Positions 10,195 to 63,189 of a stretch of 64,000 nucleotides of DNA are shown here, piece by piece. The number at the start of each line of letters is the position of its first letter. Position 1 is the stretch's first letter. The stretch lies in contig NZ_KB897908.1 in NCBI RefSeq assembly GCF_000377205.1, positions 186,001 through 250,000 on the forward strand, written 5' to 3'. The notes under the pieces are model-generated. The model worked only from the letters and a program-made list of their open reading frames with translations, did no database searches and had not been told where the DNA came from. A program made the position numbers and the translations under genes. The DNA is from Thioalkalivibrio sp. ALJ3. Its GTDB lineage: Bacteria; Pseudomonadota; Gammaproteobacteria; Ectothiorhodospirales; Ectothiorhodospiraceae.

Positions 10195-10416
10195 GTGAAG
10201 ACAACACGTTACTTCGAGACCGTACGTGTGCGGCCCGATCGCCGCAACATCAAGGACACATGGATCGAGGCCGCGATCGATCACCCCATCCGGGAAGAAG
10301 TGCAAGGCGATGGTCGTATCCGCCGATGGGCCCGGATCGATGAAGCGGATGGCCGCTATCTTCGCGTGGTGTTGCTTCCTGACGGTGTGACGGTCCACAA
10401 CGCCTTTTTGATCTAG
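10195..10416 (+). CDS. Small toxin-like protein, partner of the downstream DUF2283 gene
   Basis: A 73-residue basic protein starting with GTG at 10195, preceded by AGGGA at 10183-10187. It has motifs EVQGDGRIRRWARI and RYLRVVLLPDGVTVHNAF. I recognise this pattern from small uncharacterised proteins encoded beside DUF2283 genes and regard it as a putative toxin of a type II-like pair, which is inference. Its TAG stop (10414-10416) is the left CTAG edge of the inserted palindromic element. Without the element, the stop would be followed after 10 bases by the start of the DUF2283 gene. Confidence 0.6.
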   Translation: MKTTRYFETVRVRPDRRNIKDTWIEAAIDHPIREEVQGDGRIRRWARIDEADGRYLRVVLLPDGVTVHNAFLI

Positions 10417-10686
10417 GGAAACACTGATTAATGTACACACTCGCGTTGGTACCCCAGGTTTTCCGAGACCAGGCGCGGTGCGCAGCCGGTAGTGGTTCTA
10501 CCGGCAAGGACCGCAACGCAGGATCGGGGAACCTGGGGTGCCAACCCCGAAGGGGCTCGGCCGCTTTTGCGCGCGCACGGCGTTGCGGTTCCCTTGTGCA
10601 GAATGACTGCACGGCGGTCACCGCGCCTTGTTCGCACGCAAAAGCGACTCGAGCGCGAGCGTGTACATTGATCAGTGTTTCCCTAG
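10413..10686 (-). mobile_element. MITE-like palindromic element, copy A (274 bp)
   Basis: Terminal inverted repeats of 33 bp (10413-10445 with 10654-10686, 31 of 33 pairing) begin CTAGGGAAACACTGATTAAT. The inside is the reverse complement of copy B (20354-20641). One arm is 10445-10466 with 10524-10545 and carries an apical hairpin GCCGGTAG/CTACCGGC at 10485-10505. The other arm includes CGCTTTTGCG and the hairpin GTGCAG/CTGCAC. Both borders are CTAG, consistent with duplication of TA. No reading frame of note lies inside. It separates the toxin-like gene from its DUF2283 partner. Confidence 0.85.
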
Positions 10687-10696
10687 GGTTCAAGCC

Positions 10697-10894
10697 ATGA
10701 AGCTCCAGTACTTCGCGGATACCGACACGCTGTACATCGAATTCCGGGGCGAGAACGTGGCCGAGACCCGTTCCCTGGACGAGAATACGACACTGGATGT
10801 GGACGCCCAGGGCGAGGTCTGCGCGATCACCTTCGAACATGCCAGTGAGCGTACCGACCTGCAGCACTTGACCGTTGAGGGTATAGCGGCCTGA
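10697..10894 (+). CDS. DUF2283 family small protein, probable antitoxin-like partner
   Basis: A 65-residue protein with the DUF2283 signature: a start like MKLQYFADTDTLYIEF, then E.R.LDENTTLDVDAQGEVCAITFEHAS. DUF2283 proteins are often the second gene of toxin-antitoxin-like pairs. The ATG at 10697 follows AGGG at 10685-10688, which lies at the junction of the inserted element and flanking DNA, so the ribosome site is retained. The gene is now 280 bases from its likely partner and may have lost cotranscription or gained a new upstream sequence. Confidence 0.75.
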   Translation: MKLQYFADTDTLYIEFRGENVAETRSLDENTTLDVDAQGEVCAITFEHASERTDLQHLTVEGIAA

Positions 10895-20158: not shown

Positions 20159-21394
20159 CCGTGGTCTCCTTGTAAGTGGATGGTGGGTGGGTATCCGGTG
20201 AGGAAACGGGCTGTTCTTTGTCCTCGAGCAGGCCCGCGAGCCGCGAAAAATCGTCCGGGCCGGCGGCATCGAAGCCCCGTTCGTGTCGAATCGCCTGCAG
20301 AAGCGCGCGTCCGTCTGGAGTATCCGACAGCCGCTCGAATTTCCCCTGCAAGTCTAGGGAGACGCTGATTTAATCACACGTCCGCGCTCGAGTCGCTTTT
20401 GCGTGCGAACAAGGCGCGGTGACTGCCGTGCAGTCATTCTGCACAAGGGAACCGCAACGCCGTTCCCACGCAAAAGCGGCCGAGCCCCTGCTTTCAATGG
20501 CTTGTGGGGTTGGCGCCCCCTGTTCCCCGATCCTGCGTTGCGCCGCTTGCGGGTAGAACCACTACCCGCTGCACGACGCGCCTTGTCTCGGAAAACAGGG
20601 GGCACCAACGCGGACGTGCGATTAAATCAGCGTCTCCCTAGATCATCGCTGCGCGCACGTTGGTGGAGCACAACCGTGAAGCCGGGGAAACTCTCCGACT
20701 GAGCGATGATGCGGGCCAGAGTGCCGTCGGCGAGGGCGATCAGTCGTGCGGTGTCGACCGTCTCTTCACGCGGTTGCAGGGCGACCCCGTCGATCACCAC
20801 CACACTTGCGTCGGCCAGGCCCAGCAGCATGGCCGATGTGGCTCCCTGGTGGTGCGGGAACTCCAGGTATTCGACTGCTGGCTCATTGGGCGCAAATTCG
20901 ATCTCCAGGAGGGTGCGCGCCAGGGTGGCGCCTATGCTGTGGCGGAAGGGTGTGGCCAGTGTGGTGCCTTCAAGGTCAGTCAGACTCCTGATCGCGCTGT
21001 CAGCGGGGGCGACGATCACAATGGCGAAGATATCTCTTGAGCGTGCGACGGGCGCATAGGGCCCGGCCGCGTCGAGCAGGGGCACCACATGGGGGGCGAC
21101 GATGGCGATTTCGTAGCGTTCGTCGTGGAGGCGCTCAATGAACTGTGACAAATCCCGGGATGACTCCAGAAACACGGGGTCGCCGCGCTCTTCGGCGATC
21201 CAGTCGCGCAAGGGCGCATAGCGTTCGAACAGTACGGGCGGGCTGGCGAAGGGCTGCACACCCAGGGTCCATGTGTCGGCGGTGACCGGGGATGCCATCA
21301 GGAGTGTGAGCAGGATTGTGAGGCAAGCCCCCACCCGCCGCGAACGCACGGCAAATCGGCATGACGACCAAACGCGTGGCCCGGGGGCTCGCAT
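20136..21394 (-). pseudogene. PhnD-like periplasmic binding protein gene interrupted by palindromic element
   Basis: The 5' part (21394 to about 20642) encodes a signal peptide (cleavage likely after ASPVTA) and a mature type 2 periplasmic binding domain of the phosphate/phosphonate (PhnD-like) kind: LGVQPFASPPVLFERYAPL, IAIVAPHVVPLLDAAG, TTLATPFRHSIGATLAR. The current frame runs into copy B and stops after 255 residues. The 3' part (20353-20136) encodes KFERLSDTPDGRALLQAI and more, the C-terminal helices of the same family. Joining the two across a single CTAG gives one uninterrupted 324-residue frame. The 255-residue product is probably non-functional; no transporter genes adjoin it, so it may have been a sensory binding protein. 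Confidence 0.85.
20354..20641 (+). mobile_element. MITE-like palindromic element, copy B (288 bp)
   Basis: Terminal inverted repeats of 33 bp (20354-20386 with 20609-20641, 32 of 33 pairing) begin CTAGGGAGACGCTGATTTAA. Arm 1: core stem 20394-20405 with 20467-20478 and apical hairpin GTGCAG/CTGCAC at 20428-20444. Arm 2: stem 20509-20530 with 20588-20609 (19 of 22 pairing) and hairpin GCGGGTAG/CTACCCGC at 20549-20569 with loop AACCA. CTAG flanks both sides and the target gene reads through when one copy is removed. It encodes no protein of note. Confidence 0.88.
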
Positions 21395-27031: not shown

Positions 27032-27210
27032 GCGCGCGCCTCGCTGGCAATTCGGCGGGGCCGTGAGGCGGCCAACAGGCGGCGTTCTCGCGAACCTTAA
27101 TCCACACACGCATCGACACGGTCTGTCGGGTGCCTGCCAGGAGGCTTCGGTCTCGTGCCGGGTTTCAGATCGGGATGCGTGGAGGCTCAACCCGTTACAG
27201 GAGAAACCTC

Positions 27211-63025: not shown

Positions 63026-63189
63026 CTAGGGAGACGCTGATTGCATCACACGTCCGCGCTCGAGTCGCTTTTGCGTGCGAACAGGGCGCGGTGACCGCCG
63101 TGCAGCATTCTGCATAAGGGAGCCGCAACGCAGGATCGGGGAATTGGGGGTACCAACGCGGACGTGTGATGCAATCAGCGTCCCCCTAA
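63026..63189 (+). mobile_element. MITE-like palindromic element, copy C (164 bp, shortened)
   Basis: Terminal inverted repeats of 33 bp (63026-63058 with 63157-63189, 31 of 33 pairing) read CTAGGGAGACGCTGATTGCA, with GC in place of the TA of copy B on both sides. It keeps the first half of arm 1 and the outer part of arm 2, with the rest missing. The left border is CTAG and the right border CTAA. Its right edge supplies the TAG stop of the ABC ATPase gene. Confidence 0.85.

What the first reader, a model, noticed from the sequence alone, without database searches (positions are those of the whole stretch)
20354..20641. Family of dispersed palindromic elements with a conserved two-arm fold and matched base changes
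Three copies (10413-10686, 20354-20641, 63026-63189) share 33-bp terminal inverted repeats; the two full copies have two internal hairpin arms. The copies differ, yet stem differences are matched on both sides. Arm 2 reads GCGCCCCCTGTT in copy B and GCACCCCAGGTT in copy A, with three changes all compensated opposite. The apical hairpin is GCGGGTAG/CTACCCGC in B and GCCGGTAG/CTACCGGC in A, with the AACCA loop kept. The outer stem reads TGATTTAATC, TGATTGCATC or TGATTAATG with matching partners. This means the fold is maintained, by selection on RNA or single-stranded DNA or by self-templated repair. No transposase is encoded, so a helper enzyme elsewhere is expected.
Basis: partly seen in the sequence, partly recalled or inferred. 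Interest (0 to 1): 0.78.

Follow-up and report, generated by a model that had tools for sequence, protein, structure and literature searches.

The report
IS5-type MITE with self-matched ends
The three copies are members of a real mobile repeat family, about 60 per genome in the soda-lake bacterium Thioalkalivibrio; the family appears to borrow an IS5-type transposase found in sister species, and its matched base changes look like ends copied from each other at the DNA level rather than a preserved RNA shape.

Summary
Confirmed and extended. The window copies belong to a family of mostly 261-345 bp non-coding elements, about 60 per genome, restricted to Thioalkalivibrio (121 ends against 0 control matches in this genome). 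They are MITEs. They sit in 4-bp YTAR duplications (CTAG, TTAA, CTAA), and precise empty sites exist in congeners, including for copies A and C. The predicted helper was found: a 1.2-kb IS5-family element in five congeners has the same ends and target. It was not detected in this genome.

The fold is real (z about -16), but covariation is confined mainly to the outer stem: there the true partner is the best-correlated column in 32 of 36 tests; arm 1 gives 0 of 10. The 'compensated' arm-2 changes are one subfamily split or blocks that move together. All 164 two-ended copies carry two left-type or two right-type IS ends (105 LL, 59 RR, 0 LR), whereas the IS is LR. Wobble counts show no consistent strand. 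This favours self-templated end copying in DNA over RNA selection.

Unexpectedly, at orthologous loci the ends stay with the locus (2% divergence) while hairpin modules differ as often as between random copies. Ectopic gene conversion is inferred; long reads should check this.

The parts
10413..10686 (-). Copy A, full-length, LL-type ends, no 15-bp modules; flanked by CTAG at 10413-10416 and 10683-10686
   Evidence: Sequence; fold; end typing; empty site in three congeners
20354..20641 (+). Copy B, full-length, RR-type ends, long middle-hairpin module; flanked by CTAG at 20354-20357 and 20638-20641
   Evidence: Sequence; folds; 97-98% identical copies elsewhere in the genome
63026..63189 (+). 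Copy C, internally deleted derivative (RR ends, arm 2 mostly lost); flanks CTAG 63026-63029 and CTAA 63186-63189
   Evidence: Sequence; clean empty site in congener G001 reading ...gcggctcCCTAGtcaggg...
20357..20385 (+). Left half of the outer stem of copy B (29 bp; first 18-20 bp resemble an IS end)
   Evidence: Consensus pairing; covariation
20610..20638 (+). Right half of the outer stem of copy B
   Evidence: Consensus pairing; covariation
20386..20485 (+). Arm 1 of copy B; site of optional hairpin module I (absent here)
   Evidence: no covariation
20485..20509 (+). Middle hairpin of copy B, long form of module II
20509..20609 (+). Arm 2 of copy B, with the apical GCGGGTAG-AACCA-CTACCCGC hairpin; site of module III (absent here)
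   Evidence: block exchange at orthologous loci
10414..10416 (+). TAG stop codon of the 73-aa ORF 10195-10416, contained in the target duplication of copy A
   Evidence: 31 of 122 neighbouring gene 3' ends lie at this position in the sampled copies

Best explanation
These are MITEs mobilised in trans by an IS5-family transposase that inserts into YTAR sites (shown: matching ends, matching target, empty sites; inferred: that this transposase moves them). The family arose from an element with one left and one right IS end. Hairpin fold-back copying of one end onto the other produced two palindromic subfamilies, LL and RR, and still occasionally spreads a change from one end to the other (end symmetry shown; copying mechanism inferred). 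The hairpin arms inside are not kept paired by compensation. They are exchanged in blocks between copies while the ends stay with their locus, most simply by ectopic gene conversion anchored in the shared ends (pattern shown on draft assemblies; mechanism inferred). No RNA function is needed to explain the fold.
For: Family and restriction. Target duplication: 46/164 CTAG/CTAG, 16/164 TTAA/TTAA. Empty sites: copies A and C, and loci L007 (CTAG, exact), L014, L028, L037, L047. Helper: DUF772+DDE_Tnp_1, NF033581 IS5 (319 bits, cut-off 140), 1202 bp with the same ends; known IS5 target is C(A/T)A(G/A), 4 bp (PMC11677980). Ends: 105 LL, 59 RR, 0 LR, against IS copies LR. Of 68 minority letters at diagnostic end positions, 34 are on both ends. 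Outer stem partner rank 1 in 32/36 tests. In situ at orthologous loci: 3 two-sided changes, all Watson-Crick to Watson-Crick, against 16 one-sided, about 0.2 two-sided expected. Wobbles: arm 1 G.T 90, A.C 21; arm 2 G.T 33, A.C 81. Interior: ortholog pairs differ in modules in 27-50% of cases against 34-49% for random pairs, end type 0/17 against 47%. The observed/random ratio jumps from 0.03-0.14 to 0.8-1.2 at 30 bp inward.
Against: No helper or IS5-type transposase was detected in this genome, although near-identical copies suggest recent movement. A G.T mismatch in the outer stem survived at a locus where a nearby pair changed on both sides (L221/L187), so copying tracts must be short or selection is involved. 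Outer ends diverge about four times less than flanks (2.0-2.2% against 7.6-9.2%), which end copying alone does not predict; part of this is ascertainment, since elements were found by their ends. Arms, which should also template themselves, show no such correction. One of the six typed IS right ends is ambiguous by the same rule.
Confidence: 0.7

Rival explanations
1. The fold is maintained by selection on a transcribed RNA (for example as a 3' UTR stabiliser, terminator or RNase III site), because elements sit just past stop codons.
For: Very stable fold; 31 of 122 neighbouring gene ends use the target duplication as stop; outer stem conserved more than flanks; two outer positions (22, 24) prefer G.T over A.C (32:8 and 36:3).
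Against: Arm 1 shows no covariation and arms accumulate one-sided changes. Wobble preference is opposite in the two arms, so no one strand is favoured. No Rfam match even at E up to 5. The stop-codon position follows from the CTAG target.
Confidence: 0.15
2. Pure inheritance: both ends were identical in the founders, and all matching variants arose before transposition; nothing acts on pairing now.
For: Subfamily-diagnostic positions explain much of the covariation; ends are vertically inherited at orthologous loci.
Against: Founders with matching ends still need a matching event for each variant. Position 15 occurs as all four Watson-Crick pairs (74, 26, 25, 18 copies). Three two-sided changes occurred at fixed loci.
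Confidence: 0.2
3. The interior exchange is an artefact: short-read assemblers put the wrong copy's interior between correct flanks.
For: Most genomes are multi-contig drafts and contig ends fall inside copies; ends within reach of unique flank look stable while interiors look random.
Against: The jump occurs 30 bp inward, and a linked 3-base block 62-65 bp from the edge is exchanged, close enough for a typical read anchored in unique flank. Columns at the base of arm 2, some of them 130-157 bp from an edge, stay linked to the locus (ratio 0.16-0.31), opposite to a distance effect.
Confidence: 0.2
4. REP/REPIN or IS200/IS605-like elements moved as single-stranded hairpins.
For: Palindromic, intergenic, high copy; REPs (GTAG-1) were reported from Thioalkalivibrio sp. 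K90mix (PMC3733652).
Against: Four-base target duplication and a DDE-type IS with the same inverted ends do not fit a Y1/HUH mechanism, which leaves no duplication (general knowledge).
Confidence: 0.02

Closest known systems
IS5-family insertion sequences, IS5 group (E. coli IS5)
   Same: DDE transposase with DUF772, about 1.2 kb, about 16-bp imperfect inverted repeats, 4-bp C(A/T)A(G/A)-type target duplication
   Different: The window elements encode nothing, share only the outer 18-20 bp with the IS, and have two ends of one type
Bacterial MITEs (RUP, NEMIS, ERIC, Nezha, EFAR; listed in PMC3733652)
   Same: 70-300 bp, non-coding, terminal inverted repeats, strong fold, next to genes, can be mobilised by transposases that recognise their ends
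   Different: Strict LL or RR end symmetry with no LR copy; three independent optional hairpin modules; interior exchanged at fixed loci (not known to me for those families; not tested here)
Quasipalindrome correction by template switching (PMC8794818, PMC7202029)
   Same: Makes the two arms of an inverted repeat match in one event without selection on RNA
   Different: Here inferred across dispersed copies of a mobile element and restricted to its outer stem
REP elements of Thioalkalivibrio (GTAG-1, PMC3733652)
   Same: Palindromic repeats in the same genus
   Different: 20-40 bp, often RAYT-associated; different size and no DDE-type IS with the same ends

Membership tests
[quoted passage not shown]
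   164 two-ended copies of 158-345 bp, mostly 261-315 bp; window copies overlap only incidental ORFs
[quoted passage not shown]
[quoted passage not shown]
   IS5-family element in congeners with the same 16-18 bp ends
[quoted passage not shown]
   Needs a mobilisation assay
IS5 group of the IS5 family (helper) | Transposase of the IS5 family | tested here: met
   NF033581 transpos_IS5_4, 319 bits against cut-off 140; PF01609 and PF05598
IS5 group of the IS5 family (helper) | 4-bp YTAR / C(A/T)A(G/A) target duplication | tested here: met
   CTAG or TTAA flanks on IS and MITE copies; published consensus
Structured RNA family | Covariation throughout the consensus helices | tested here: not met
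   Outer stem 32/36, arm 1 0/10, arm 2 7/22 partner-rank tests
Structured RNA family | Match to a described family | tested here: not met
   No Rfam match at E up to 5
REP/REPIN | 20-40 bp palindromic unit without target duplication | tested here: not met
   Element length and 4-bp duplications; REP definition from PMC3733652

The most novel reading that the evidence does not exclude
A bacterial MITE family works as dispersed exchangeable cassettes: palindromic ends are kept identical to each other by self-templated copying and stay with their locus, while hairpin modules between them are reshuffled genus-wide by frequent short-tract ectopic gene conversion.
Probability: 0.45. Interest if true: 0.65.

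Novelty: new variant of a known kind. Interest (0 to 1): 0.5.

Why it matters
Covarying base pairs are usually read as proof of a functional RNA. This family offers a natural case where covariation can be traced to end-matching in DNA, with the asymmetric parent element and orthologous loci available as controls. It also offers about 60 dispersed copies per genome in which recombination between short repeats can be measured at fixed loci, in a genus where curated SbcC and SbcD models detect no hairpin nuclease.

Tried and rejected
PF01609 and the IS5 transposase were sought in the own genome without success. Similar DNA in plasmids, phages and viral contigs: none. Rfam: none for the element. 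RNAalifold on the full alignment broke up around the modules, so averaged pair probabilities were used. Nearest-copy pairs first suggested many one-step compensated changes in the outer stem; comparison of orthologous loci showed that interior exchange makes such nearest pairs false sisters, so the ortholog counts are the ones relied on. SbcCD-made breaks as the trigger of exchange: not supported, no genome of the genus reaches the curated cut-off for SbcC or SbcD. Arm 1 as an inverted duplicate of arm 2: suggestive only (local score 22, shuffle maximum 24). Several scripted 'element' calls at loci without a real element (for example L289, L317, L323, L352) were spurious and left out.

Full report
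What is there. Copies A (10413-10686), B (20354-20641) and C (63026-63189) are at the stated places. A and B fold into a long outer stem, two arms and a small middle hairpin, about 15 to 17 standard deviations better than shuffled sequence; B does so on both strands. In the whole genome (2.63 Mb, 12 contigs) the end motif CTAGGGARACRCTGATT occurs 121 times with up to two mismatches, against 0 for the reversed control. Several contigs begin or end inside a copy. The motif is confined to the genus: most congeners in one part of the genus carry tens of ends, and other genera essentially none. A genome-collection scan for the apical hairpin identifies the genus as Thioalkalivibrio, with one other hit (Sphingopyxis) that is about what chance predicts for that pattern (my estimate).

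It is a transposable element. Of 164 two-ended copies, 46 are flanked by CTAG/CTAG and 16 by TTAA/TTAA; many of the rest are one-base departures. CCAG next to GG is common, as expected if CTAGG decays towards CCAGG by very-short-patch repair (inference from general knowledge). Orthologous loci without the element show precise empty sites: for copy A in three congeners, for copy C in G001, and for several other own-genome copies. Locus L007 reads gacgcCTAGtcgat when empty and carries CTAG on both sides when occupied. Tandem copies share a single CTAG (L120). In 31 of 122 cases where a coding frame ends near an element, the stop codon lies in the duplication itself. CTAG contains a TAG stop on both strands, and the duplication restores it. 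Copy A does this to the 73-aa ORF 10195-10416. Gene calls here rest on codon-position G+C only.

The helper. No IS5-type transposase was detected in the own genome. In congeners, DUF772-containing transposases sit between the same ends: G029 has three identical 1202-bp copies, and G021, G012, G022 and G010 have others, some of them damaged. The protein is an IS5-family transposase (NF033581, 319 bits; PF01609, PF05598). E. coli IS5 also duplicates a 4-bp C(A/T)A(G/A) target (PMC11677980). That this enzyme moves the MITE is inferred.

End symmetry. The IS ends differ from each other after about 13-16 bp: the left end runs ...CTGATCAATGG and the right end ...CTGATTTAATCC or ...TTCG. Every MITE with two ends has two left-type or two right-type ends: 105 LL, 59 RR, none LR by the position rule, at most 1 of 164 by majority of diagnostic sites. 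Copy A is LL; B and C are RR. Both types share the same interior. The assignment to IS ends rests on only a few positions. The simplest history is one LR ancestor in which one end was copied over the other in either direction; that is what fold-back synthesis on a hairpin does (PMC8794818). Rarer letters at diagnostic end positions are on both ends in 34 of 68 cases.

Covariation, tested by helix. Structure was taken from pair probabilities averaged over 157 copies and both strands. For each variable paired column I ranked the true partner among all other variable columns, so that shared ancestry and linkage act as the control. Outer stem: partner ranked first in 32 of 36 tests. Arm 1: 0 of 10. 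At orthologous loci the outer stem shows 16 one-sided and 3 two-sided changes, the latter all Watson-Crick to Watson-Crick, where about 0.2 two-sided are expected; a fourth case is, at a locus where the interior was also replaced. Overall G.T and A.C counts are near equal (684, 611), and in nearest-copy comparisons G.T is favoured in arm 1 and A.C in arm 2, so neither strand behaves as the functional RNA. Paired and unpaired columns are equally variable.

Interior exchange. Copies come in lengths about 15 bp apart because three sites each carry an optional hairpin or loop module. All pairs of module sites show all four combinations. At orthologous loci with both flanks matching, end type never differs (0/17; 47% for random pairs), but module and tip states differ in 8/16, 7/18, 4/15, 5/12 and 5/12 pairs, close to random pairs at 34-49%. 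Divergence at such loci is 2% in the outer stem, 7-10% in the interior, 8-9% in flanks. The change from locus-bound to random occurs 30 bp inward on both sides, while the base of arm 2 stays locus-bound. Interiors are as different within as between genomes (9.6%, 10.1%). Ectopic gene conversion fits: both junctions must fall inside shared sequence, so the extreme ends are not replaced and LR hybrids are not formed (inference). Assembly error from short reads is the main doubt; the 30-bp onset and the non-monotonic profile argue against it but do not exclude it.

Host context. Curated SbcD and SbcC models reach their cut-off in no genome of the genus, which may explain tolerance of long palindromes and argues against SbcCD as the source of breaks. 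In E. coli, SbcCD cleaves hairpins at interrupted palindromes and the breaks are repaired by recombination (PMC4245961). Species with few copies carry a roughly 420-aa metallophosphoesterase with a partial SbcD match that copy-rich species seem to lack, but this follows clades and is only a lead.

Verdict. Observation confirmed; interpretation partly supported. A new MITE family of a known kind with two unusual properties, self-matched ends and exchangeable interiors. No description of it was found in the paper library. Selection on RNA is not excluded but nothing here requires it.

Noticed in passing
27085-27191: Rfam t44 RNA (RF00127), 68.9 bits, the only Rfam match at gathering threshold in the window.
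   Followed up: no
10195-10416 and about 10700-10894: Two small genes (73 aa, and a start reading MKLQYFADTDTLYIEF..., resembling DUF2283 by eye) are separated here by copy A without loss of coding sequence; three congeners have the same flanks joined.
   Followed up: partly
L120 449-1964 (G029): A MITE and an autonomous IS copy lie side by side sharing one CTAG, showing that both use the same target.
   Followed up: yes
genus-wide, G000-G029: No SbcC or SbcD above the curated cut-offs; a roughly 420-aa partial SbcD-like metallophosphoesterase is present mainly in species with few MITE copies.
   Followed up: partly
left and right flanks of many copies: CTAG flanks often appear as CCAG/CTGG next to the element's G run, the change expected of very-short-patch repair at CTAGG.
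   Followed up: no
L101 1440-1486: A 47-bp derivative consisting of almost nothing but the two ends.
   Followed up: no
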